A stretch of DNA of 41,146 nt from positions 1 through 41,146 of the forward strand of contig JACQZP010000022.1 in assembly GCA_016213825.1 (NCBI GenBank), written 5' to 3'. The notes below the pieces were generated by a model, which saw nothing but the letters and a program-made list of their open reading frames with translations, searched no databases and was not told the origin of the DNA. The translations under genes were made by a program, and so were the position numbers. This document shows, in pieces, positions 28,456-41,128 of the stretch; position 1 is the stretch's first letter, and each line of letters begins with the position of its first letter. The stretch is from Acetobacterium woodii. GTDB lineage: Bacteria > Bacillota > Clostridia > Eubacteriales > Eubacteriaceae.

Positions 28456-28660
28456 CTCAAAGAAACCAGTTATTGATTATGCCAACTGTATGGCCTGTGG
28501 CATCTGTTCTGGAGATTGCCCGCTGAGCTGTATCGTCCTACGAAAAACCGATATTGACAGCTACCATAAAGCCTACCCGGTGCTGGATGACTACTACCTC
28601 TGTAATGGCTGTACCCGTTGTGCGAAAGCCTGTCCAATGGAAGCGATTAAGATGATGTGA
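28448..28660 (+). CDS. 2[4Fe-4S] ferredoxin
   Basis: A 70-residue electron carrier with two cluster motifs, CMACGICSGDCPLSC (about 14-28) and CNGCTRCAKACP (about 54-65). The linker between them is longer than in clostridial 55-residue ferredoxins. It overlaps the AOR gene by 8 nt (start ATGACT inside GTGACCCATGAC), so it is translated with it. It is the probable electron partner or small subunit of AOR. Confidence 0.92.
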   Translation: MTNSKKPVIDYANCMACGICSGDCPLSCIVLRKTDIDSYHKAYPVLDDYYLCNGCTRCAKACPMEAIKMM

Positions 28661-28678
28661 GCACGAAATTAAACAGTT

Positions 28679-28763
28679 TACCCATATGAAATTATTGAGA
28701 TAGCAGTCTTTCCAAAAGTTATCCTTGACTGAAATCATTTATAATTCACGTATGGGTATTTTT
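28679..28763 (+). terminator. Terminator-like long-range hairpin after the AOR operon
   Basis: TACCCATA (28679-28686) pairs with TATGGGTA (28751-28758), which is followed by TTTTTG. Just inside, AAATTAT and ATAATT extend the stem after a small internal loop. The enclosed loop is about 45 nt, so folding is less certain than for short hairpins. Confidence 0.4.
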
Positions 28764-28793
28764 GTATTAAAAAATTTTCTTTTATTTTTTACA

Positions 28794-28815
28794 TTTAGGT
28801 TATATTTATCCTAAA
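28794..28815. promoter_or_regulatory. Candidate autoregulatory operator of the antitoxin gene
   Basis: Inverted repeat TTTAGG-N10-CCTAAA lies about 30 bp before the antitoxin start. It sits between a TTTACA-like -35 box (28788-28793) and a TAAAAT -10 candidate. Phd/YefM antitoxins commonly bind such palindromes in their own promoter. Confidence 0.45.
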
Positions 28816-28846
28816 ATAGGGTATGATAGAAAAAAAGGAGGTGTTT

Positions 28847-29095
28847 ATGATGCAGATTGACACCAAAAATCTAGTTTCGATTTCTGAAGCTAACCAGAAC
28901 TTTTCCAAAGTTGCTCGTCTTGTCGACGAAAATGGCGCTGCCATTATCCTGAAAAACAACACGCCTCGGTATGTCTTAATTGAATTTAGTCAGTTTCAGA
29001 AAGAAGAAATCAGCAGCGATGAAGATGCGAATACTATAGCTAAGAGAATATTATCCAAACATAAGGTGGCCTTTGAGGAATTAGTAAAATCTTAA
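28847..29095 (+). CDS. Orphan Phd/YefM-family antitoxin
   Basis: An 82-83 residue protein; two adjacent ATGs (28847, 28850) follow AAAAGGAGG. The N-terminal Phd fold is clear (LVSISEANQNFSKVARLVDENGAAIILKNNTPRYVLI; key pattern SxxEANQNFSKVxRxVdExG...IlkNnxPryVli), followed by an acidic and Lys-rich C-terminal tail that would neutralise a toxin. No toxin gene (RelE, Doc or PIN type) follows: the next 257 bp lack an open frame with a ribosome-binding site. It may act as a stand-alone regulator, or pair with a toxin elsewhere. It sits immediately before the CRISPR locus. Confidence 0.85.
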   Translation: MMQIDTKNLVSISEANQNFSKVARLVDENGAAIILKNNTPRYVLIEFSQFQKEEISSDEDANTIAKRILSKHKVAFEELVKS

Positions 29096-29102
29096 ATTAT
29101 CA

Positions 29103-29131
29103 TATACAATTTTAATAAATTCGGGTATAAT
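29103..29131 (+). promoter_or_regulatory. Promoter of the crRNA-like guide
   Basis: TATACA (29103-29108), 17 bp, TATAAT (29126-29131). The predicted start near 29138 coincides with the beginning of the first degenerate repeat, so the transcript would begin at the guide itself. Confidence 0.65.
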
Positions 29132-29136
29132 CAATT

Positions 29137-29239
29137 TTCGAACCACAACAGATTTTTTGTATTTAAATTGTGTTATTAAAATGTATCTCATTCAATAACT
29201 CTGCCGAACCATAACATATGATGTTAAACCTTTTTAAAT
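29137..29239 (+). ncRNA. Stand-alone crRNA-like guide (CreR-type) with two degenerate CRISPR repeats
   Basis: The first degenerate repeat at 29137-29168 keeps GAACCA.AACA and ends GTATTTAAAT against GTTTTTAAAT in the array, but its hairpin region is altered and 2 nt longer. A single 34-nt spacer follows (29169-29202), within the 34-38 nt of the array. The second repeat at 29203-29239 has one change near its start, keeps the AACAT-ATG-ATGTT hairpin and carries a 7-nt insertion before TTTAAAT. Spacer positions 1-5, 7-10 and 13-18 match 29275-29292, next to and overlapping the cas promoter. Processing by Cas6 would give a handle ATTTAAAT, one base from the array handle. This layout is that of CreA/CreR RNAs. 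Confidence 0.8.
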
Positions 29240-29274
29240 ATGTTGAGTTTGGGTAGATACTCAATTACTAATCA

Positions 29275-29308
29275 TGTGTAATTATTATGTATATATTTTC
29301 TTATTGAC
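29275..29308 (+). promoter_or_regulatory. Partial-match target of the guide, overlapping the cas -35 box
   Basis: The site lies on the plus strand with TCA immediately 5' (29272-29274), the PAM position for type I systems; TCA is a functional PAM in clostridial I-B systems with related repeats. It matches the guide at 15 of the first 18 positions (mismatches at 6, 11 and 12; every sixth base is unpaired in type I complexes) but only 5 of the last 16. Such a target can be bound but should not trigger Cas3. The last 5 bases of the site cover the -35 hexamer. Confidence 0.75.
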
Positions 29309-29332
29309 AATTTGCATATTTGGGAGTAGTAT
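29304..29332 (+). promoter_or_regulatory. Promoter of the cas operon
   Basis: TTGACA (29304-29309), 17 bp, TAGTAT (29327-29332). Start near 29339 would leave a leader of about 14 nt before cas6 at 29353. The candidate array promoter in the leader uses the same TAGTAT hexamer. Confidence 0.75.
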
Positions 29333-29352
29333 TATTACAAAGGAGGCGCAAA

Positions 29353-30045
29353 ATGAAAATATTATCCTACGAAGTAAAAATTTATGTGTTAAAAGATATT
29401 CCTAACACCCTATTGATGCAGAAACAGTGCGAGCTTATCGATACCTGTTTTGTAAACGATGCCAAGTGGTCAGTATGGCATAAAACAAATCAGTTTAAAA
29501 ACTATTCATTTGCTGGCTGCATTCCCGTGGAGGCAAATAAAATCTATCGTGAAGGTAACGTCTATTCTTTCACTCTCCGAACCTTCAATGAAGAACTCGG
29601 ACAGTTATTTATGTCGACACTACAAAACGCTTATACCCCATTTTTAAAGGTTCTAACCATTAAATCAAAAATATTACCTCAAGTTCAACTCGCAAAAATC
29701 TATACCCTTACTCCCTGTGTACTTAAGACCGATAACGGTTATTGGCGCACCGTTATGAATCTTGATACATTTGAAAGAAGATTGCGTGAAAACCTGATTA
29801 AGAAGTACAATCTTATTACCAATACTAAAATTGACGAAGACTTTACCTTTTTTTCTCATATCAAATTCGATAACCATAAACCGATCGCCGTCCCCTATAA
29901 AAATGTCAACCTTTTAGGAGACAAGGTAACCCTCATGGTTGAACCCAACCCATCTGCCCAAAAGCTTGCCTACGCGGCCTTGGGCTGCGGATTATTAGAA
30001 GCAGGCTCTCGTGGTTTTGGTTTCTGTGGTTATAAATTCGCCTAG
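29353..30045 (+). CDS. cas6: CRISPR-associated endoribonuclease Cas6
   Basis: Processes precursor crRNA within repeats and leaves the 8-nt 5' handle. It is 230 residues from the ATG at 29353 behind AAAGGAGG; the longer frame from 29320 would cross the promoter. Family features are the ferredoxin-like fold with FAGCIPVEANKIYREGNVYSFTLRTFN in the N-terminal half and the glycine-rich C-terminal loop LLEAGSRGFGFCGYKFA. First gene of the cas operon; cas8b starts 11 bp later. Its likely RNA substrates include both the array transcript and the guide upstream. Confidence 0.92.
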   Translation: MKILSYEVKIYVLKDIPNTLLMQKQCELIDTCFVNDAKWSVWHKTNQFKNYSFAGCIPVEANKIYREGNVYSFTLRTFNEELGQLFMSTLQNAYTPFLKVLTIKSKILPQVQLAKIYTLTPCVLKTDNGYWRTVMNLDTFERRLRENLIKKYNLITNTKIDEDFTFFSHIKFDNHKPIAVPYKNVNLLGDKVTLMVEPNPSAQKLAYAALGCGLLEAGSRGFGFCGYKFA

Positions 30046-30056
30046 GAGGTGATAAT

Positions 30057-31820
30057 ATGCTAAAAGATTGCATTGATATTTTTGAGCGAAAATATTCTTC
30101 GGCTGGCGATGCTTTGATTACTGACAATTATACACTCGATCCCGGCACCTATATCCTGGTTGATTTGGACGGTCAAATCATTGATCAAAAAGATGTGATC
30201 AAAAATAACTTTGATCGCATTGGGTTTGATGACTTTATTGAGTGCGATTATCTATCCAAATTATTGGATATGAACAAGCCAATCGATGGGAAAAAAGTAA
30301 TTCACAGCAATAACTATCTGAGTTTCTGGATAAAAAAAGACAACTTGCTGCCGAATAATAATGGCAATACCAAACTTAGTCTAGACATTATTAATAACTA
30401 CTACAGTATTTTGGAAAATCCAAGACTCAAGTATACAAAAAAAAGCCTTGAACTGTATGACGACCTTGAGACATCAATTGGCGCTCCCAACCTTGAAATA
30501 CTCGAATTTTGTAAAACGTGGATCACCGAGCATATTTTTTCATTCATTAACGATCCTAAAATCAAATTTGATAAAACTTATTTAAAAATCTTTTTTCTGG
30601 CTGACCTGAGTCTGTATCACCAGGAAAGTCAACGCTACTTTCTGCCTAATATCTATAACACTACCGATTACAACATGTTAATTAATGATCAGATCTTTGG
30701 GCTGCCCAACAACAACATGGGAATGAACGCTAAAAAACCATATCTTGAGAACAAAACCCGTATCAAAAGCAAGGTTCCTTATCTCCTTTCCACTGACGAC
30801 GTTTATATTCAAAAAAAGTTCTTCGACTACTTGTATAATTATGCCAACCAGGGAAAAACAAATGTCTATTTCAGCACTGACAGCAATGATCCAGATCCCA
30901 TCTATCCTTATGAAAGCAGCCAGGCTCACACTAAAAATTTGAATGGCTATTTTCTAAGAATTCAAAAAGGTAAAGAGCTGGAAATACGGGATTATGACTT
31001 AATCACCGGCTATTCACCGGATCTTGATCACTTTGTCATTCAGCAGGTTATTCCTATTCCCAAGGACGCCCATTCCGATCTGACCTACGGTAATAATCTT
31101 AATTTAGAAAGTGTTCAGCATGTTATCAATACGACTTTTTTTAGAAAATTTTTAACCACAAATTATTTTACAGACGCTGGCGATATCAGGCTGAATGATT
31201 TCAGAGTCAAAGAAGAACTCTTACGATGTCGAAACGGTTTTTTCACCTGGGTTTATAAGGGGGATGCCCGGACGATTAAAAACCTCTTTCCCCAAAGCTC
31301 CCTTGAACTGATTAAAAACTCGATTGGTAACGGTCATTTTATTAAAGCCGTTGAACAATTTAATGTGCGCGACGGATTTATCACTTATTTTAAAGGAGGA
31401 ACAAGCATGGCAGATCAGTTAATTCCAATTAGAAAGAGATTACGCGAAAAACTAAACAGCACTGACGATCATTCCATTGAAAACGATCTGGAATATTTCT
31501 ATGCCGTTGGTCAGATTACTAATTATTATTTATCCCGAAGCAAATCGAGCAAAAAGCCGGTTTACTCAACCGTTAATCCGGTTGTCAATTGCAAATCAAA
31601 TGAGAAATTAAAAGATCTCCTGACACGACTCTTTCTCAAATACAATTACGATATTCAAGCTAACCGTCGTTTCGGCAATCTCCAGAGTATGATTTTTGCC
31701 TATGTACCTGATGGTCCCATGGATTCAACGACCTTAATTGCCGGTTATTTAAGCCCAAATCTACTTTATGAATCAAACAAAGAAACCAAAACACAGGAGG
31801 AAACTACAAATGTTGAATAA
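30057..31820 (+). CDS. cas8b: Type I-B Cascade large subunit Cas8b (Csh1-like)
   Basis: Large subunit of the I-B effector complex that reads the PAM and recruits Cas3; 587 residues. It starts with LKDCIDIFERKYSSAGDALITDNYTLDPGTYILVDLDG, of which the YILVDLDG segment and the DNLLPNNNGN region are typical of Csh1/TM1802-type proteins. The last 137 residues are mostly helical and have their own internal start signal (see the Cas11b entry). AGGAGGTGATA precedes the ATG. Its 3' end overlaps cas7 by 11 nt. Confidence 0.9.
   Translation: MLKDCIDIFERKYSSAGDALITDNYTLDPGTYILVDLDGQIIDQKDVIKNNFDRIGFDDFIECDYLSKLLDMNKPIDGKKVIHSNNYLSFWIKKDNLLPNNNGNTKLSLDIINNYYSILENPRLKYTKKSLELYDDLETSIGAPNLEILEFCKTWITEHIFSFINDPKIKFDKTYLKIFFLADLSLYHQESQRYFLPNIYNTTDYNMLINDQIFGLPNNNMGMNAKKPYLENKTRIKSKVPYLLSTDDVYIQKKFFDYLYNYANQGKTNVYFSTDSNDPDPIYPYESSQAHTKNLNGYFLRIQKGKELEIRDYDLITGYSPDLDHFVIQQVIPIPKDAHSDLTYGNNLNLESVQHVINTTFFRKFLTTNYFTDAGDIRLNDFRVKEELLRCRNGFFTWVYKGDARTIKNLFPQSSLELIKNSIGNGHFIKAVEQFNVRDGFITYFKGGTSMADQLIPIRKRLREKLNSTDDHSIENDLEYFYAVGQITNYYLSRSKSSKKPVYSTVNPVVNCKSNEKLKDLLTRLFLKYNYDIQANRRFGNLQSMIFAYVPDGPMDSTTLIAGYLSPNLLYESNKETKTQEETTNVE
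31407..31820 (+). CDS. cas11b: Internally translated small subunit Cas11b
   Basis: Inside cas8b and in the same frame, AAAGGAGG at 31392-31399 stands 7 bp before an ATG at 31407 (residue 451 of Cas8b). Translation from it gives a 137-residue protein beginning MADQLIPIRKRLREKL, helix-rich as expected for Cas11. Type I-B, I-C and I-D systems are known to make their small subunit from the 3' end of cas8 in this way, and no separate cas11 gene is present. The strength of this internal site matches the starts of the flanking cas genes. Confidence 0.85.
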   Translation: MADQLIPIRKRLREKLNSTDDHSIENDLEYFYAVGQITNYYLSRSKSSKKPVYSTVNPVVNCKSNEKLKDLLTRLFLKYNYDIQANRRFGNLQSMIFAYVPDGPMDSTTLIAGYLSPNLLYESNKETKTQEETTNVE

Positions 31821-32757
31821 GCGAATTTACGGTGTTCTTGGAATTAAATCAGTAATGGCAAATTGGAATGCCGATTTTACTGGGTTTCCTAAATCCATCT
31901 CTACTGGCGAAGTTTTCGGAAGTGACAAAGCGCTAAAATACCCAATCAAACGGATGTGGGAAGATCAGGGCGAAAAAGTCATCTATCTCAAGTCTTTTAA
32001 AACTGACCAGGATAAAAAGAAAGGGGAACCAGATGCCGTAAAAGTCCGTCCCAAGTCTTTGAAAGAACGCTACGAAGAAGTTTTTAATGTTCCAAACTTA
32101 AAAGATGAACGGGATAATCTTACTGTTTTAAAAAATTTATTTGCCGCCATCGATATAAAAAACTTTGGTGCTACCTTTGCTGAAGAGGGAAATAACCTTT
32201 CGATTACTGGTGCTGTTCAAATTACTCAAGGTTTTAATAAATACGACGGTCATAATGTTGAAGAACAGCAGATTCTTTCGCCCTTTAGAGACAGTACTAA
32301 AGACGAGGCTGACCAATCCACTTTGGGAACAAAAATCGTCAGCAATGAAGCCCATTATTTTTATGGTTTTGCGATTAATCCCAGTGTTTATAAAAACTTC
32401 ATTGAAATGGGTGTTACTGATGGTTATACTCAGGAAGATTATGATAAATTCAAAACTGCTGCATCCGTAGCTGCCACCTCTTATAATACCAACGCCAAGG
32501 TTGGCTGTGAAAACGAATTTGCGCTTTTTATTGAAACGGAACCCGAACTTTATTTGCCCGACCTAGCCCAATATATTACTTTTGAAAAAAATCCAGACGG
32601 TAAAGATATCATTCACCTGGGAATGACTGATTTAATTAACAATCTTGAAAGCCGCGTTCTTTCGGTGGAAATTCATTATAATCCCTATACGACCATCCTT
32701 GAAGGAGAATTAAATAAAGCCAAACTCTTTAATATCTTTACAAAAGCTGAGGTATAA
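31810..32757 (+). CDS. cas7: Type I-B Cascade backbone subunit Cas7 (Csh2)
   Basis: A 315-residue RNA-binding subunit that polymerises along the crRNA spacer. The start is the ATG at 31810 behind AGGAGG inside the end of cas8b. Csh2 hallmarks are RIYGVLGIKSVMANWNADFTG, STGEVFGSDKALKYPIKRMW and the central ITGAVQITQGFNKYDG region, with a C-terminal acidic segment. cas5 follows after 2 bp. Confidence 0.94.
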   Translation: MLNKRIYGVLGIKSVMANWNADFTGFPKSISTGEVFGSDKALKYPIKRMWEDQGEKVIYLKSFKTDQDKKKGEPDAVKVRPKSLKERYEEVFNVPNLKDERDNLTVLKNLFAAIDIKNFGATFAEEGNNLSITGAVQITQGFNKYDGHNVEEQQILSPFRDSTKDEADQSTLGTKIVSNEAHYFYGFAINPSVYKNFIEMGVTDGYTQEDYDKFKTAASVAATSYNTNAKVGCENEFALFIETEPELYLPDLAQYITFEKNPDGKDIIHLGMTDLINNLESRVLSVEIHYNPYTTILEGELNKAKLFNIFTKAEV

Positions 32758-32759
32758 AT

Positions 32760-33515
32760 ATGGAGACACTCACCTTTAAGCTTAGCGGCGAAACCGGGTT
32801 TTTCAAACAACCGGATGTCAATACCTATCAATATTACACCTACGGGCATATTCATAAGGTTGCATTATTAGGAATATTCGGTGCCATCTTAGGATTAGAC
32901 GGCTATAACCAACAACAAAAATCAGATATTTATCCTCAATTCTATGACCAATTGCAACATTTAAAAGTTGCCATTCGGCCTTTAAACGAAGAGGGGTATA
33001 TTCCCAAAAAGGTACAGGTTTTTAACAACTCTGTTGGTTATGCATCCAAAGAAGAGGGTGGCAATCTGATCGTCAAGGAGCAATGGTTGGAAAAGCCGGC
33101 CTGGCAAATTTATTTGTTGTGTGAGAACTTGGAAGCCGACTTATTACTTCAAAATTTGAAAAAGCGACTCCTTGAAAAACGTTTTGTCTATCTCCCCTAT
33201 CTTGGGAAAAACGATCACTATGCCAATATTGAAGAAATCGCAGTTTATCCACTCGAGATACGATCACCAGATTCACCGATTCGCATCCACAGCCTTTTTC
33301 CCAAATTATCTGGAACACTGGTTCCTCAAGATGATTTATTTTCTGATGATATGGAAGAACTCGATTTTAAATATGAAGAACGGCTGCCACTGACTATCGA
33401 TTCCTGTTCCAATCAGTATCAGACCATCCCATTTATTTACACCAATATTCCGGTAAAATTTTCAGATACGACAACTCTATACCAGGCTAACAAAACGAAT
33501 CTTATCTTTTTTTAG
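32760..33515 (+). CDS. cas5: Type I-B Cascade subunit Cas5
   Basis: A 251-residue subunit that caps the 5' handle of the crRNA. The N-terminal part METLTFKLSGETGFFKQPDVN and YGHIHKVALLGIFGAILGLDGY is the RAMP/Cas5 N-domain of the Hmari/I-B type. The start lies two bases after the cas7 stop, with a weak upstream Shine-Dalgarno, consistent with translational coupling. cas3 follows after 9 bp. Confidence 0.92.
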   Translation: METLTFKLSGETGFFKQPDVNTYQYYTYGHIHKVALLGIFGAILGLDGYNQQQKSDIYPQFYDQLQHLKVAIRPLNEEGYIPKKVQVFNNSVGYASKEEGGNLIVKEQWLEKPAWQIYLLCENLEADLLLQNLKKRLLEKRFVYLPYLGKNDHYANIEEIAVYPLEIRSPDSPIRIHSLFPKLSGTLVPQDDLFSDDMEELDFKYEERLPLTIDSCSNQYQTIPFIYTNIPVKFSDTTTLYQANKTNLIFF

Positions 33516-33524
33516 GAGATTGCC

Positions 33525-36173
33525 ATGTATTTTGATCAAATTCCACGCTTTAATTTCACAGAGAATTTTAATACTGCTGCTCCCTTCCATGCCCATCTTA
33601 GCAAAGATGTGCATGGAAATGTTATCTCAGAGTTATTGGAAGAGCATATGAACCTTACCATGAGCTATTTCGACAAGCTTTTTGAGGAAAAGAATTTAGA
33701 CCCGATTTTTCATCATTTCGAAGACCGATTGGTTGGCGATTTATCCGATCCAGCCAAAAACTTATGGAAGGAGCTTTTTTATAATACTATTTATACACAT
33801 GACCTTGGTAAAACCAATCCAAATTTTCAATGCCAGAAAATGGATAACCAAGCCCATCAGGCTACCCTCTCAAAAAACACAAATCATTCTTACTTTTCAG
33901 CACTTATTTACGCAAATCACTATCTCAACAAAATCTTTTTGTTTAAAGGCGCAGAACAACAACTTCTATTTTTTACCCTAGTCTTTAATTCGTATATCAT
34001 TAGCAAGCATCATGGTTATCTCAGCAGTTTCTCAAAATTTCTAGAAGAAATCAGTCAAGATTTAGCCAATGAAAAACCCCATGATTGTATTTTGTATCTG
34101 GAATCATTTGGTAGCATCATAAACAAACCGGGGATTATTGAGCAATCTTACTATAAGGTACTAACCGATCTAAAAAGAAATGAACTGTGGAAGTCCATTC
34201 CCTGGATCATCTATGGTCGATTTTTATTTGGTCTCCTAGTTTCCTGTGATTTTTATGCTACCTCTGATTTTATGAACGGGCCCGTTCAAAATTTTGGCAC
34301 GATCAAGGATATTAACAACTATCGCATGGCATTTAATCAATCACCCATTACTCAAAACATCCACAAACATCAGTTAAGTAAGAATAGTACTACTGGCAGT
34401 CCATTTGAAAAAGATGATATTAACACCTTGCGTAGCGAACTTTTCTTAGAAGCTGAAGAAAATCTATTGAAAAACCCCAATGAATCACTTTTCTTTTTTG
34501 AAGCGCCTACCGGAAGCGGTAAAACCAATACCTCTATCAATCTTGCCCTAAAACTATTGGAATCAGATTCGAGGCTCAATAAAATCACCTATGTTTTTCC
34601 TTTTAATACGCTGGTCGAGCAAACCAAAAGCAGTTTAATAAGTGCTTTTAATGCTGACCCATCCATTGCTGATGATATCACGGTGGTTAATGGTATTACT
34701 TCTATTAAATCATTGTCAACTTCTGGCGACGATTATCCAGATGGCGAGTTGTATACATCCGCAGAAAAACGACGTACCGATGTAGAAAAACGCTGCACTG
34801 ATTATGAACAATCCCTTTTAGCACGACAATTTTTGCACTATCCGATAGTTCTGACCACCCATGTCAATTTTTTTAACACGCTTTTTGGCACCGACCGGGA
34901 ATCAGTTTTTCCCCTTGCCCATCTTGCTAACAGTATTATTATCGTGGATGAAATCCAAAGTTATCCGAACCATCTTTGGAAAGAGATTATTCTATTTCTT
35001 CAGGATTACGCCCAGCTTTTAAACATGCGCATCATCATCATGTCTGCCACCCTACCAGATTTGGGACAACTTAGTTTGAAGGATGCTCGCCCAGTACCAA
35101 GACTAATTAAAGACCCGCAACGCTACTACCAGCATCCGCTTTTTAAAGACCGCGTAAGTTTAGATTTTTCATTGTTAAAATATGATCGGGAATCTCTTCT
35201 TGATAAGCTTTTAGATAAAATAATTGAAACCAGCATTGCCCTCGAAAACAATCCCGATTTTGTTGGTTTTGAGAACAAAATTCTGGTTGAATTTATTAAA
35301 AAATCGACGGCGCTTGATTTTTTTACGCGATTAAATGAAAACCTCATCGCACAAGGAATCAACCGCAAAGTTTTATGTATGACCGGCGACGATAATAAAG
35401 CGGAAAGAAAGCGCATTATTGAAAAAGTACGAACCGGAAAAAATCTGATTCTGGTTGCTACTCAGGTGATCGAAGCCGGCGTCGACATCGATATGGATAT
35501 GGGCTTTAAAGACATTTCGCTTTTTGATGCAGAAGAACAGTTCCTTGGCCGCATCAATCGCTCCTGTAAGAAGAAAGGTGCCAAGGTTTTCTTTTTCAAC
35601 TATGATCCTGCTGATCTTTTATACCACAACGATTTCAGAAAACAGGAACACCTCACGATCCAGGATCAAACCATGTGGAACCTGCTTGAAAGCAAGAATT
35701 TTACTGCATTTTATGATATCATTCTCAAAGAAATCAATGCGTCCAAACAGGCTTACAATGAGTCAAATATTGAAAATTTCGCCCGGGAAATCTTATGGAA
35801 TTTTGATTATTTTGGACTCCAAAAACATATGAAGCTCATTGATGACGAACGCCAGGAAATTTCCCTGTTCATCTGCGGTGATCCTGTCGAAATTGATGGG
35901 GTTCTCATTGATAGTGGTGTCCTCTGGAATGACTATCTTGATTTATTGAAAGACAATTCCATGGGCTATGCCGAAAAACGGGTGCGTTTATCAAATTTTT
36001 CAGAAAAAATGGATTATTTTATTTATCAAATTCCCATGCCAAAATATTCTTTTGATTATCAAGGTCAGATCGGTGATCTTTATCGATGTGAACGTGATGA
36101 AACGTTTTTCCCAAATGGCAAGTTTGATCGAAATGCATTTCGCGATTATCATGAAAACAATCTTTTTTTGTAA
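33525..36173 (+). CDS. cas3: Cas3 nuclease-helicase
   Basis: An 882-residue effector that degrades target DNA after Cascade binding. N-terminal HD nuclease motif HDLGK at about 92-96, with further His residues (FHHFED, SKHHGYL). SF2 helicase: Walker A APTGSGKT (327-334), DEIQ box (475-478), SAT-like MSATLP, and the C-terminal motifs ATQVIEAGVDID and EEQFLGRINRSCKK (motifs V and VI). Single polypeptide HD-helicase as usual in I-B. A strong GGAG precedes the ATG. All catalytic motifs look intact. Confidence 0.95.
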   Translation: MYFDQIPRFNFTENFNTAAPFHAHLSKDVHGNVISELLEEHMNLTMSYFDKLFEEKNLDPIFHHFEDRLVGDLSDPAKNLWKELFYNTIYTHDLGKTNPNFQCQKMDNQAHQATLSKNTNHSYFSALIYANHYLNKIFLFKGAEQQLLFFTLVFNSYIISKHHGYLSSFSKFLEEISQDLANEKPHDCILYLESFGSIINKPGIIEQSYYKVLTDLKRNELWKSIPWIIYGRFLFGLLVSCDFYATSDFMNGPVQNFGTIKDINNYRMAFNQSPITQNIHKHQLSKNSTTGSPFEKDDINTLRSELFLEAEENLLKNPNESLFFFEAPTGSGKTNTSINLALKLLESDSRLNKITYVFPFNTLVEQTKSSLISAFNADPSIADDITVVNGITSIKSLSTSGDDYPDGELYTSAEKRRTDVEKRCTDYEQSLLARQFLHYPIVLTTHVNFFNTLFGTDRESVFPLAHLANSIIIVDEIQSYPNHLWKEIILFLQDYAQLLNMRIIIMSATLPDLGQLSLKDARPVPRLIKDPQRYYQHPLFKDRVSLDFSLLKYDRESLLDKLLDKIIETSIALENNPDFVGFENKILVEFIKKSTALDFFTRLNENLIAQGINRKVLCMTGDDNKAERKRIIEKVRTGKNLILVATQVIEAGVDIDMDMGFKDISLFDAEEQFLGRINRSCKKKGAKVFFFNYDPADLLYHNDFRKQEHLTIQDQTMWNLLESKNFTAFYDIILKEINASKQAYNESNIENFAREILWNFDYFGLQKHMKLIDDERQEISLFICGDPVEIDGVLIDSGVLWNDYLDLLKDNSMGYAEKRVRLSNFSEKMDYFIYQIPMPKYSFDYQGQIGDLYRCERDETFFPNGKFDRNAFRDYHENNLFL

Positions 36174-36185
36174 AGGAGTAAGCTT

Positions 36186-36680
36186 ATGGGAGTAACCGGT
36201 ACCCTGGTGAATTATTACATTCATTGCAAGCGTCAATGTTGGCTTCATGGTAATCGGATCAATCTGGAAGACAACAGCGAGGATGTTAAAATTGGAAAGG
36301 CGCTGCATGAGGTTAAAGCAGCTGAAAGTGCCGAAACGGAAATTTCTGTTGAAAACATTAAAATTGATAAGATTACCAGAGATTACCTGGTCGAGATCAA
36401 AAAATCCGATGCTGACTATGAAGCCGTTAAGTGGCAAGTTCTGTTCTATCTCAGTGTTTTGAAGAAAAAAGGAATTGAGCGCCAAGGAAAAATCGAATTT
36501 ATTGAAAAAAATAAAAGTGATCGAAAAATATATTATCTAGACCTGGATGATGAAAACATTCAAAAGCTGTCAGACATCGAAACGGAAATTATTGAATTGT
36601 TGAACCAGCCGACACCACCATCTGTTGCCATTAATCGGAAATGCACCAAATGTGCTTATTACACTTATTGCTGTATCTAA
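36186..36680 (+). CDS. cas4: Adaptation protein Cas4
   Basis: A 164-residue RecB-type exonuclease that trims prespacers and fixes PAM orientation. The four cluster Cys residues are near the N terminus (HCKRQCWL) and at the C terminus (CTKCAYYTYCC). RecB motifs are KIGKALHE, VEIKKSD and the QVLFYLSVLKKKGI (QxxxY) motif. The start follows AAAGGAG. It lies between cas3 and cas1 like other I-B loci. Confidence 0.93.
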   Translation: MGVTGTLVNYYIHCKRQCWLHGNRINLEDNSEDVKIGKALHEVKAAESAETEISVENIKIDKITRDYLVEIKKSDADYEAVKWQVLFYLSVLKKKGIERQGKIEFIEKNKSDRKIYYLDLDDENIQKLSDIETEIIELLNQPTPPSVAINRKCTKCAYYTYCCI

Positions 36681-36692
36681 AGGAGGTTTTTT

Positions 36693-37691
36693 ATGGGACA
36701 TACCCGCTATCTGACATCGATGGGTGAGTTAACCAGAAAGGATAATTCACTCTGTTTTCGTGTGAATGGACGAAATACTTATATTCCCATTGAAGGGATC
36801 CGCGAACTTTATTGTCTATCTGAAGTAAGTATCAATACAAAGCTTCTTGATTTCCTCTCAAAAAACAATGTCATTATCCATTTTTTCAACTATCATGAAG
36901 GCTATAGTGGCACCTTTTACCCTAAAGAAACTTTGGTCAGCGGCCGCTTGCTGGTTGCTCAAGTAAACGCTTCAATAAATAAGCGTCTCGATATTGCCAA
37001 GGCAATTGTTCAGGGCATCGCAGATAATATTGATGAACTTCTCTACCATTATTATAAACATGAAAAGAAAGAGGTAAAACCAACCATTGACTGGATTCGA
37101 AGGGATTTACCATTAAATCTAGCTCATGCCCACAATATAAAACAAATTTTGCAAATTGAAGGGGAATTGTGGCAGCGTTTTTATTCATGTTTTAAATTTT
37201 TCTTACCTGAAGATTTTATGATGAATAAACGTGTCAAGCGCCCTCCTGACAATCCAATCAACGCACTGATTTCTTTTGGCAACAGCTTGCTTTATTCCAA
37301 GACTATATCCGTAATTTATCAAACCCATTTGGATCAGCGCATCAGTTTTCTTCATGAACCATCAGAAGGGCGATTTTCTCTGAGTCTTGATTTATGTGAA
37401 GTTTTTAAACCCGCGATCGTTTTTAAGACCATCTTTGATCTTGTGAATAATCGTCGCCTTCAAGTTGATAAACATTTTGAAAAAAAATTAAATTACTGTA
37501 TTCTTAATGAAGAAGGACGCAAAGTATTTATCGGAGCTTTCGAAGAACGTCTTGAAAGTGTTTTTCAGCATCCCAAACTGAAGCGGAAGGTAAGCTATCG
37601 AACCGCCATCAAATTAGACTGTTACAAACTAATTAAGGAAATCCTTGAAGACCAAACTTTTACGCCATTCAATAGTAAGGAGAAACAATAA
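36693..37691 (+). CDS. cas1: CRISPR integrase Cas1
   Basis: A 332-residue metal-dependent integrase that inserts new spacers with Cas2. Recognisable blocks are YIPIEGIRELYCLSEVSINTKLLDFLSKNNVIIHFF, PDNPINALISFGNSLLY and FLHEPSEGRFSLSLDLCEVFKP, which hold the catalytic Glu, His and Asp/Glu. AAAGGAGG precedes the ATG. cas2 starts 3 bp after the stop codon. Intact, so the locus may still acquire spacers. Confidence 0.96.
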   Translation: MGHTRYLTSMGELTRKDNSLCFRVNGRNTYIPIEGIRELYCLSEVSINTKLLDFLSKNNVIIHFFNYHEGYSGTFYPKETLVSGRLLVAQVNASINKRLDIAKAIVQGIADNIDELLYHYYKHEKKEVKPTIDWIRRDLPLNLAHAHNIKQILQIEGELWQRFYSCFKFFLPEDFMMNKRVKRPPDNPINALISFGNSLLYSKTISVIYQTHLDQRISFLHEPSEGRFSLSLDLCEVFKPAIVFKTIFDLVNNRRLQVDKHFEKKLNYCILNEEGRKVFIGAFEERLESVFQHPKLKRKVSYRTAIKLDCYKLIKEILEDQTFTPFNSKEKQ

Positions 37692-37694
37692 CTC

Positions 37695-37979
37695 ATGGGA
37701 AAGTCACTTAATTATAACTATGCCTTTGTTTTCTACGATATTAACGAAAAACGCGTGACCAAAGTTTTCAAGATTTGCAAAAAATATTTAGTTCATTACC
37801 AAAAATCTGTTTTCCGTGGTGCGATTACACCATCTAAACTTATCCAGCTTCGTCAGGAATTAAAAAATATTATTGTTGGCGAAGAAGATTTTGTGTGTAT
37901 AATTAAATTGATTAATGGTGATGTTTTCGAAGAAGAAACTTTGGGCAATTTCCAATCTGCCGAAAATCTTTTTCTTTGA
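37695..37979 (+). CDS. cas2: Adaptation protein Cas2
   Basis: A 94-residue partner of Cas1 with a ferredoxin-like fold (YAFVFYDINEKRVTKVFKICKKYL, KSVFRGAITPSKLIQLRQEL). The Asp in YDI corresponds to the conserved metal-site residue. AAGGAG lies upstream, in the end of cas1. It is the last gene of the operon; the leader and array begin directly after it. Confidence 0.95.
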   Translation: MGKSLNYNYAFVFYDINEKRVTKVFKICKKYLVHYQKSVFRGAITPSKLIQLRQELKNIIVGEEDFVCIIKLINGDVFEEETLGNFQSAENLFL

Positions 37980-38138: not shown

Positions 38139-39929
38139 GCTGAACCATAACATATGATGTTTTTAAATTTTACATGGTCTTATGGCTGACATGGCATCTT
38201 GTGAGCTGAACCATAACATATGATGTTTTTAAATAAGAAAAAACGAAACTAACTAAGTGAATGGTGGGAAGCTGAACCATAACATATGATGTTTTTAAAT
38301 ATATCTAAATACTGTTAATGGTTTTGAAATTTATCGCTGAACCATAACATATGATGTTTTTAAATTCGAAACGGCATGCAGTTTATTCCGGAATACGTTT
38401 CGCGCTGAACCATAACATATGATGTTTTTAAATGGAATAATTTCATAATAAGGATCCTCAATTATTTTTGCTGAACCATAACATATGATGTTTTTAAATT
38501 TTGATATAGTGACGCCATTCATATTGACGTTGACAGCTGAACCATAACATATGATGTTTTTAAATCCGCCAGACATCCAGTTCATCCAGCCTTTATTTTG
38601 CGCTGAACCATAACATATGATGTTTTTAAATTTAACTAATTTGAATACGGTTGTCATGCAGCCTTTAGCTGAACCATAACATATGATGTTTTTAAATGCC
38701 CGGTATGCTGCAATACGATCAACTTCATCAGCGCTGAACCATAACATATGATGTTTTTAAATTCAAAGAGGCCATGAAAGCTTATACAAATAAATTGAGC
38801 TGAACCATAACATATGATGTTTTTAAATATAAAAAAAGATTATCAATCATTTAATCGAGAATAGCTGAACCATAACATATGATGTTTTTAAATCAACAAC
38901 GGAAATTACATAAACAAATTGTTGCCAGTGCTGAACCATAACATATGATGTTTTTAAATACGATGAATTTGAATTAAGCGCGAGCAGAGCTGCCCGCTGA
39001 ACCATAACATATGATGTTTTTAAATATAATAATCTTTCAGGATTAACTACATCTGCAATGTGCTGAACCATAACATATGATGTTTTTAAATGGGTCAGAC
39101 AAATACATTTGGAAAGATCGACTTGGGCTGAACCATAACATATGATGTTTTTAAATATTAACCCACTTGCCGTAATTGAAAATCCTGTGGGTGCTGAACC
39201 ATAACATATGATGTTTTTAAATGCGATTAACAAACCAATGGGAAATTCTTTCAACGAGCTGAACCATAACATATGATGTTTTTAAATCTAATAAAAGTCG
39301 ATCCAACAGATCTTCTCACTTGAGCTGAACCATAACATATGATGTTTTTAAATAGGACAACTAGCCGCTCAAATACAACCAATGCTCGGCTGAACCATAA
39401 CATATGATGTTTTTAAATAAGTTCTCGAAAAGGAGATATTGGCGAAACATTAACTGCTGAACCATAACATATGATGTTTTTAAATGGATGAAACAACCAG
39501 GGGCGTTTTAACAAACATCTTGCTGAACCATAACATATGATGTTTTTAAATCCGTCGGCAATATGACAATGAGTTATGGGGTTGGCGGCTGAACCATAAC
39601 ATATGATGTTTTTAAATTCAACATTTTCTGATGCGACCAATGATTGAGGCAAGCTGAACCATAACATATGATGTTTTTAAATAGATTGGGATTTTGTTAG
39701 AACTGTAGCTAAAAACTCGCTGAACCATAACATATGATGTTTTTAAATAGGGCTTTGTTTTTAAAATCGGGACGGGGAGAAAGCTGAACCATAACATATG
39801 ATGTTTTTAAATGTTTAACAGCGATGCTTTGACAATTTTCGGTTACAACGCTGAACCATAACATATGATGTTTTTAAATTGGCCTTGGGAAAACAGAAGA
39901 AGAATTACTGCAAGCTGAACCATAACATA
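38139..39929 (+). CRISPR. Type I-B CRISPR array, 27 intact repeats plus one truncated by an IS
   Basis: The repeat is 30 nt (starts GCTGAACCATAACA, ends GTTTTTAAAT, with the short hairpin AACAT-ATG-ATGTT). All 27 full copies look identical, at 38139 to 39879. The 27 spacers are 34-38 nt, mostly 35-36, and all differ. The repeat resembles the clostridial I-B group with ATTTAAAT-like 3' ends; the last 8 nt TTTTAAAT form the predicted crRNA handle. The 28th repeat (39914-39929) is cut after 16 nt by the IS element. Minus-strand frames across the array are repeat artefacts. Confidence 0.98.
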
Positions 39930-40007
39930 TGGATAGGCTACAATTAATTGGACAATAAAATTGTGGGCAGGTAAAATAAGAACACTAAACAAAGGAGACC
40001 TGCCAAG

Positions 40008-40292
40008 ATGACTAAAAGACCACGCCGTACTTTTACCGATGAATTCAAGAACCAGATGGTCCAATTGTACCTCAATGGAAAACCGAGAACAGAAATCGTA
40101 AGAGAATATGACTTAACCGCTTCATCACTGGATAAATGGATTAAACAACATCAAACTTCAGGCTCATTTAACGAGAAAGATAACCGCAGCGAAGAAGAAA
40201 CAGAACTGATTCGACTTCGCAGGGAAAATCAGCGACTTCTGATGGAAAATGACATCCTAAAGCAAGCCGCGCTGATAATGGGACGAAAGTAG
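40008..40292 (+). CDS. IS3-family transposase OrfA
   Basis: A 94-residue DNA-binding part of the transposase. Helix-turn-helix KRPRRTFTDEFKNQMVQLYLNGKPRTEIVREYDLTASSLDKWIKQ is the HTH_Tnp_1 type (core FTDEFK...LTASSLDKWIKQ), followed by a leucine-zipper-like LIRLRRENQRLLMENDILKQAALI. AAAGGAGA precedes the ATG. It ends 42 nt before the first ATG of orfB, but the orfB frame is open back through its 3' end. Confidence 0.93.
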   Translation: MTKRPRRTFTDEFKNQMVQLYLNGKPRTEIVREYDLTASSLDKWIKQHQTSGSFNEKDNRSEEETELIRLRRENQRLLMENDILKQAALIMGRK

Positions 40293-40333
40293 AAGTCATC
40301 AAAGCAAATCAAGACAGATACTCGATATCAGCA

Positions 40334-41128
40334 ATGTGTGACGTCCTGGGAATTCCAAAGAGTACCTTTTATCACACTTCCAAGAAAACAGCTGAACCCG
40401 ATCCAATTATCAACGACGTGATTGAAATTTTCAAATCCAGCCGAAGGAATTACGGAACCCGTAAAATAAAATATGAACTTAAAGACCGCGGCATTATCGC
40501 TTCCCGTCGACGGATTGGCCGTATTATGAAAGAAAACGGATTAGTTTCAAATTACGCCGTTGCTCAATATAAGGTGTACAAACAGCCTGTCAATGACGAT
40601 TCTTTTCCAAACGAAGTCAATCAGCAATTCGATGGTCGAAATCATTTGGAAGTTATTGTCAGCGATTTGACTTATGTTCGAGTTGGGGGAAAATGGAATT
40701 ATGTTTGTCTCATCATTGATCTTCACAATCGAGAAATCATTGGATACAGTGCCGGTGCAAATAAGACTGCATTGCTTGTCTATCAGGCTTTTGCCAGAAT
40801 CAAATATCGACTGGATTTAATCACTATTTTTCATACTGATCGTGGCAGTGAGTTTAAAAACAATGCCATTGATGGCGTGATGGAAACCTTTAATATCAGA
40901 AGATCGCTCAGTAAAAAAGGTTGCCCTTATGATAATGCGGTTGCCGAAAGTACTTTCAAGGTTTTCAAAACGGAATTCGCTAATCAGCAAGTATTTCCAT
41001 CCCTGGATTATCTGAAATTGATGTTGTCCGATTATGTCAATTGGTACAACAACGTAAGAATTCATTCGTCATTGAGTTACTTGACACCAGTGGCATATCG
41101 AAAATCAGCCCACAAAAAAGTGGTCTAA
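40334..41128 (+). CDS. IS3-family transposase OrfB (DDE integrase)
   Basis: A 264-residue catalytic part counted from the ATG at 40334. Its frame is open upstream to about 40260 (KVEVIKANQDRYSISAM...), so in practice it is probably made as an OrfAB fusion by -1 frameshifting near the end of orfA. Motifs are HTH_21 RRNYGTRKIKYELKDRG and the rve/DDE core: Asp in SDLTYV, Asp in FHTDRGSEF and Glu in NAVAESTFKVFKTEF, followed by the YNNVRIHSSLSYLTPVAYR C terminus. All catalytic residues are intact. Confidence 0.94.
   Translation: MCDVLGIPKSTFYHTSKKTAEPDPIINDVIEIFKSSRRNYGTRKIKYELKDRGIIASRRRIGRIMKENGLVSNYAVAQYKVYKQPVNDDSFPNEVNQQFDGRNHLEVIVSDLTYVRVGGKWNYVCLIIDLHNREIIGYSAGANKTALLVYQAFARIKYRLDLITIFHTDRGSEFKNNAIDGVMETFNIRRSLSKKGCPYDNAVAESTFKVFKTEFANQQVFPSLDYLKLMLSDYVNWYNNVRIHSSLSYLTPVAYRKSAHKKVV

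What the first reader, a model, noticed from the sequence alone, without database searches (positions are those of the whole stretch)
29137..29332. Stand-alone crRNA-like guide with a partial match to its own cas promoter: candidate CreR-type autoregulation
Seen: two degenerate copies of the array repeat enclose one 34-nt spacer in the gap before cas6, with a promoter (TATACA-17-TATAAT) that starts at the first copy. The spacer is identical to the DNA at 29275 for positions 1-5, 7-10 and 13-18; mismatches at 6, 11 and 12, then poor similarity. That site has TCA on its 5' side and ends within the -35 box of the cas promoter. The similarity begins exactly at the spacer border, so it is not simply a duplicated repeat unit. 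Known: CreA and CreR crRNA-like RNAs use partial complementarity to guide type I Cascade as a repressor, and CreR RNAs target cas promoters; type I complexes do not pair every sixth base. Inferred: Cascade loaded with this RNA represses cas transcription, giving feedback that is relieved when crRNAs or anti-CRISPRs occupy Cascade.
Basis: partly seen in the sequence, partly recalled or inferred. Interest (0 to 1): 0.93.

Follow-up and report, generated by a model that had tools for sequence, protein, structure and literature searches.

The report
CRISPR guide that represses its own operon
Just upstream of its CRISPR genes this acetogenic bacterium carries a one-spacer guide RNA gene whose guide matches the CRISPR genes' own promoter, a match that a related species keeps although the letters change, so it is very probably a feedback switch of the already described CreR type.

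Summary
Upstream of cas6 of a type I-B operon lie two degenerate repeats around a 34-nt guide; guide positions 1-5, 7-10 and 13-18 equal the DNA at 29275, behind TCA and upstream of the cas -35 box. It is not chance: 32 of 20,000 shuffles of the 112-nt gap gave 15/18 or better anywhere, 1 of 20,000 with TCA, and the site is the only exact match in the 3.94-Mb genome besides the guide. The decisive test is comparative. Acetobacterium bakii has the same architecture with a different guide and a correspondingly different target: both changed together at positions 4, 5, 13 and 14. Of 62 testable cas6 loci, 25 have such a self-match with TCA (mean 0.33 in shuffles); 37 do not. In the 25, mismatches fall at positions 6 and 12 (26 of 50) against 9 of 350 at the other positions of 1-16, the pairing pattern of Cascade. 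CreR is published for type I systems (review), so this is a new member of a known kind. Transcription, processing and repression remain untested.

The parts
28841..29095 (+). small ORF, Phd/YefM-type antitoxin-like protein; neighbour, not part of the element
   Evidence: Pfam PF02604, E 1.1e-07, above the gathering score; no NCBIfam match
29103..29131 (+). promoter-like site of the guide RNA, TATACA-17-TATAAT
   Evidence: scan; the same two hexamers and spacing in A. bakii L009 9711-9739
29139..29168 (+). PsiR1, degenerate repeat with weak ACAGA/TTTGT hairpin and 5' handle ATTTAAAT (29161-29168)
   Evidence: read; fold; A. bakii has ACAGA/TCTGT (G-C in place of G-U) at the same place
29169..29202 (+). 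34-nt guide (spacer-like)
29203..29239 (+). PsiR2, degenerate repeat with 20 consecutive letters of the array repeat
29272..29274 (+). TCA, protospacer-adjacent motif of the target
   Evidence: TCA also in A. bakii and, without being required, in 14 of 15 strong guide-target pairs (twin locus counted), the other being TCG
29275..29308 (+). target of the guide; well-paired part 29275-29292 (15 of 18), scattered matches after that
29304..29332 (+). cas operon promoter-like site, TTGACA-17-TAGTAT
   Evidence: TTGACA-17-TATGCT in A. bakii L009 9950-9978
29353..30045 (+). cas6
   Evidence: NCBIfam TIGR01877 above cut-off; PADLOC Cas6b E 9.5e-88
30057..37979 (+). rest of the I-B operon: cas8b, cas7, cas5b, cas3, cas4, cas1, cas2
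38139..39931 (+). CRISPR array, 27 exact repeats GCTGAACCATAACATATGATGTTTTTAAAT plus a last copy of its first 18 bases (39914-39931), same orientation as the guide unit

Best explanation
This is a CreR-type element: a one-spacer mini-CRISPR upstream of cas6 that makes a crRNA-like RNA. Likely steps: transcription from 29103-29131 (sequence shown, activity inferred); cutting by Cas6 in PsiR1 and PsiR2 to leave ATTTAAAT plus the guide (inferred); loading into the I-B Cascade encoded downstream (inferred); binding at the TCA-flanked site 29275 by a partial R-loop of up to about 18 positions with positions 6 and 12 flipped out (sequence match, PAM and mismatch pattern shown; binding inferred); occlusion of the cas -35 box, lowering expression of cas6-8b-7-5-3-4-1-2 (inferred). 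The short pairing is expected to be too little to licence Cas3, so the site is held and not cut (inferred). When array crRNAs compete for Cascade, or an anti-CRISPR removes it, repression is relieved (taken over from published CreR work as told in the review PMC12737573).
For: Match, PAM and position. Unique in the genome. Covariation with A. bakii. Guides chosen by repeat architecture alone: 15 of 23 candidates in 52 loci (the twin L013 counted) had a strong self-target, 14 with TCA and 1 with TCG although no PAM was asked for. Second scan with all 18 positions scored alike: 25 of 62 eligible loci at 14/18 or more with TCA (required) against a mean of 0.33 and a maximum of 2 in 100 shuffled rounds. 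Mismatches at 6 and 12 in 26 of 50 cells against 9 of 350 at the other positions of 1-16, Fisher p about 1e-19; with near-duplicates L069 and L095 removed 25 of 46 against 9 of 322. Swapped guides reach 14/18 in 6 of 600 comparisons and their own score in 1 of 600, between two loci with identical first 18 letters. Literature: in T. maritima I-B a mismatch at 6 had no effect on binding (passages of PMC13199841); in an I-F CreA positions 6, 11 and 18 are naturally unpaired and 2-5, 7-9 and 13-17 are required (passages of PMC10097628), and all the required ones pair here; TCA is a working I-B PAM in C. autoethanogenum (passages of PMC10328091).
Against: No RNA or expression data. 37 of 62 eligible loci show no such match, among them the same-genus G013 (L015), although it has an array of about 85 repeats, and two family members (L016, L017). 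Position 11 is a mismatch outside the sixth-base rule. The terminator scan found none behind PsiR2. In A. woodii, of the same genus, the passages of PMC10328091 report CCA and GCC as working PAMs and a double C as probably essential; the PAM of this strain's own system is unknown, as its array spacers gave no phage match good enough to show it.
Confidence: 0.9

Rival explanations
1. A decayed one-spacer array, once defensive, whose likeness to the cas promoter is accidental.
For: Both repeats are degenerate; the gap is AT-rich, which raises chance matches; 37 of 62 eligible loci lack a matching unit.
Against: 1 of 20,000 shuffles with PAM; co-change with the target in A. bakii; 25 of 62 loci against a mean of 0.33; no convincing phage match of the guide (8 records, best E 1).
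Confidence: 0.03
2. The two similar stretches are a duplicated operator for a DNA-binding protein, not a guide and its target.
For: Both are AT-rich direct repeats 106 bases apart upstream of an operon.
Against: The likeness starts exactly at the repeat border and behind TCA, the letters differ from locus to locus while staying matched inside each locus, and mismatches within positions 1-16 concentrate at 6 and 12, which no protein operator predicts.
Confidence: 0.04
3. A CreA-like antitoxin guide that silences a toxin (CreTA or CrePA) and only happens to sit next to the cas promoter.
For: Same anatomy as creA; an antitoxin-like ORF lies just upstream.
Against: The target promoter leads into cas6: the -10 box ends at 29332 and cas6 starts at 29353, leaving no room for a toxin RNA or ORF; the antitoxin-like ORF lies upstream of guide and target and is not seen in the 450 bases before A. 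bakii cas6.
Confidence: 0.03

Closest known systems
CreR, cas-regulating crRNA-like RNAs (Liu et al. 2023, Cell Host Microbe 31:1481; paper not held; seen as a reference and described in the review PMC12737573, passages)
   Same: Stand-alone crRNA-like unit beside cas genes, guide with partial match to the cas promoter, type I, no toxin
   Different: Nothing essential found; here only sequence evidence. That the original work covers I-B is recalled, and whether Acetobacterium is in its list could not be checked
CreA of CreTA modules (Li et al. 2021, reference only; PMC9458426 and PMC10097628, passages; PMC8501985, abstract start in search listings, a term search found none of six terms)
   Same: Two degenerate repeats around a short guide that pairs partly with a PAM-flanked promoter site; the I-F CreA is also unpaired at 6 and 11
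   Different: CreA represses a toxin gene; here the promoter leads into cas6
Predicted mini-arrays of Shmakov et al. 2023 (NAR 51:8150; not held; seen as a reference in PMC10651486; content recalled)
   Same: Stand-alone repeats with spacers partly complementary to cas promoters
   Different: I could not check whether these loci are in their list
Long-form tracrRNA autoregulation of Cas9 (Workman et al. 2021; reference seen, content recalled)
   Same: Effector guided to its own promoter by a short match
   Different: Type II, natural single guide, not a mini-array

Membership tests
CreR | stand-alone crRNA-like unit with repeat-like flanks in a cas locus | tested here: met
   29139-29239 upstream of cas6
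CreR | limited complementarity to the cas promoter of the same locus, with PAM | tested here: met
   15/18 behind TCA; co-changed in A. bakii
CreR | not coupled to a toxin gene under the same target | tested here: met
   -10 box ends 29332, cas6 ATG at 29353, nothing between but the ribosome-binding site
CreR | effector genes and Cas6 of a matching subtype in the locus | tested here: met
   cas6, cas8b, cas7, cas5b, cas3 open and recognised
CreR | RNA is made and processed by Cas6 | not testable with these tools
   hairpins and handle present; no RNA data
CreR | Cascade-dependent repression of cas, relieved by crRNAs or anti-CRISPRs | not testable with these tools
   needs experiment
CreA of CreTA/CrePA | guide targets the promoter of a toxin | tested here: not met
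   target promoter leads into cas6

The most novel reading that the evidence does not exclude
Clostridial I-B systems carry a widespread, fast-changing family of CreR guides that co-evolve with the cas (or small-regulator plus cas) promoter, and the 25 natural guide-target pairs are a record of what Cascade reads: TCA, positions 1-17 except 6 and 12, and no selection beyond about 21. Selection may also hold the pairing short so that Cascade sits without calling Cas3. The window's element is one of them.
Probability: 0.6. Interest if true: 0.5.

Novelty: new member of a known kind. Interest (0 to 1): 0.42.

Why it matters
It turns a visual guess into a case with independent evolutionary support, in a genus of acetogens whose endogenous I-B system is being developed as an editing tool in A. 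woodii (PMC10328091, passages). A natural repressor of cas could keep Cascade levels low, and removing it would be a simple way to raise them. The co-varying pairs also give a natural data set on partial R-loops.

Tried and rejected
Guide as a defensive spacer: search of 50,697 phage records gave 8 weak hits, best E 1, none covering 80%. Array spacers against phages to learn the PAM: 11 records, best E 0.04, not usable. Phage-borne copy of handle plus guide pattern in viral contigs: 0. Rfam: 0 matches at gathering score for 28600-29400. Idea that mismatches at 6 and 12 are positively favoured: rejected, as 26 of 50 are mismatched there against 228 of 322 at positions 22-34, so fewer and not more (p 0.013). 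Second handle-like start inside the guide (guide start 29183) has no target (8/15). CreTA reading: no room for a toxin.

Rows not used: the survey held 70 loci; the twin L013 was left out of the counts (69 left, 62 eligible). L014 is the same DNA as L009; L019 (gene at contig start), L021 (weak) and L039-L050 (12 further cas6 matches) never entered. Ten loci that did enter have less than 1000 bases upstream (L032, L037, L061, L069, L079, L082, L086, L088, L094, L098), which works against finding a guide. For L063 the rule chose a TCA site; the TCG site found looks better (mismatches only at 6, 12 and 18 in the first 22).

Literature: the papers that define CreR and the mini-array survey are not held, so I cannot say whether these loci are already listed there. 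Eight paper searches were run. One search asked for Acetobacterium together with CreR: 0 papers. That library lacks most subscription papers.

A mend made on checking: a draft said that the same-genus locus G013 has no array; the stretch first taken did not reach that place, and on a further stretch shows about 85 repeats. It still has no guide unit before cas6.

Full report
Setting. The window is contig C11 of a 3.94-Mb genome of the same genus as Acetobacterium bakii: genome G008 is listed as same genus and its stretch L014 lies inside L009, the named A. bakii DSM 8239 contig. cas6, cas8b, cas7, cas5b, cas3, cas4, cas1 and cas2 run from 29353 to 37979 on the + strand, type I-B by NCBIfam and PADLOC models, followed by an array of 27 exact repeats with 26 spacers of 34-38 nt between them and a last partial copy at 39914-39931.

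The observation. The gap between the antitoxin-like ORF (ends 29095) and cas6 (29353) holds PsiR1 (29139-29168), a 34-nt guide (29169-29202) and PsiR2 (29203-29239). The guide matches 29275-29292 at 15 of 18 positions, mismatched at 6, 11 and 12, with TCA at 29272-29274; the full protospacer runs into the cas -35 box at 29304. The bases before the target are not repeat-like, so it is not a copied repeat unit.

Chance. Of 20,000 dinucleotide shuffles of the 112-nt stretch after PsiR2, 32 reached 15/18 anywhere and 1 did so behind TCA. In the whole genome the gapped 15-base pattern occurs exactly only at the guide and at the target; with up to 2 mismatches 10 places are found (these two included), against 6 for the control pattern read backwards. 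None of 26 array spacers exceeds 13/18 against the gap.

Covariation in the genus. A. bakii (cas6 73% identical) has the same order: TATACA-17-TATAAT, PsiR1, guide, PsiR2, then TCA plus target, then TTGACA-17-TATGCT and cas6. Guide and target both differ from the window's at 4, 5, 13 and 14 and stay matched within each species; own scores are 15/18 and 14/18, crossed scores 11/18 and 9/18. A. bakii is unpaired at 6, 10, 12 and 18. Behind PsiR2 its sequence shows, by eye, a long inverted repeat followed by T; the terminator scan did not list it. A near twin of the window (G010, cas6 92%) has the same guide and the same first 18 target letters and so adds nothing, although its array repeat has changed.

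Survey. Guides were first picked by repeat architecture only in 52 cas6 loci (twin included): 23 candidates in 20 loci. Fifteen had a target at 13-15 of 15 scored positions; 14 carry TCA and one TCG, without a PAM being asked for. Eight had none (8-11 of 15). Of the 15, 13 were reached by 0 of 300 shuffles; L022 gave 0.003 and L028 0.067. The score of that call left out positions 6 and 12, so a second scan of 69 loci (twin dropped) used all 18 positions alike, with TCA required: 62 loci were eligible, 25 reached 14/18, and 100 shuffled rounds gave a mean of 0.33 and a maximum of 2. The 25 come from 16 numbered genera in three families plus one MAG locus (genus and family numbers). Because this score treats positions alike, the pattern of mismatches is not built in: position 6, 13 of 25; position 12, 13 of 25; the other fourteen positions of 1-16, 9 of 350; positions 22-34, 228 of 322, near the 0.66 expected from composition. 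Guides tried on the other loci reached 14/18 in 6 of 600 comparisons and their own score in 1, between two loci whose first 18 guide letters are identical.

Reading. Indifference at every sixth base is what Cascade shows: in T. maritima I-B a mismatch at 6 had no effect while 1-5 and 7 left little or no binding (PMC13199841, passages). In a tested I-F CreA, 6, 11 and 18 are unpaired and 2-5, 7-9 and 13-17 are needed (PMC10097628, passages); in the window all the needed positions pair. TCA is a working PAM of the C. autoethanogenum I-B system and TCG is reported for C. tyrobutyricum; against this, the double C of CCA/GCC is reported as probably essential in A. woodii (PMC10328091, passages). 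So the element is best read as a guide that sends Cascade to the cas promoter.

Where the target sits. In 12 of the 25 pairs, the window and A. bakii among them, a promoter-like site of 10 of 12 or better begins within 50 bases of the target start; no shuffle control was run for this. In 7 (L026, L028, L030, L074, L080, L093, L095) a ribosome-binding-site-like motif of cas6 or of a small ORF before it begins within 27 bases of the target start. In L028, L030 and L080 that ORF looks, by eye, like a small helix-turn-helix protein (no family search was run).

Limits. Not all loci have it: 37 of 62 eligible do not, including same-genus G013, which does have an array of about 85 repeats. No RNA, binding or expression data exist here. 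Feedback and its relief are carried over from the published CreR work as told in the review PMC12737573 (passages); the primary paper was not available.

Verdict. Observation confirmed, interpretation supported, new member of a known kind.

Noticed in passing
28841-29095: A Phd/YefM-type antitoxin-like ORF; the ORFs of 80 aa or more listed around it show no small partner. It is also upstream of the guide in the twin genome G010 but not in the 450 bases before A. bakii cas6.
   Followed up: partly
L028, L030, L080 (upstream of cas6): The self-target lies at the start of a small helix-turn-helix-like ORF (by eye) that precedes cas6, so the guide would repress a regulator together with the cas genes.
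   Followed up: partly
L103 (G010): The twin locus has 65 array repeats with AACCGTAAC where the window has AACCATAAC, while its guide unit keeps AACCATAAC in PsiR2: array repeat and guide unit evolve apart.
   Followed up: no
L015 and L106 (G013): A same-genus I-B locus with about 85 array repeats but no guide unit found before cas6: the element can be absent where an array is present.
   Followed up: partly
40008-41128: IS3-like transposase ORF pair directly behind the array; only the first ORF was scanned and matches an IS3 family model below its cut-off.
   Followed up: no
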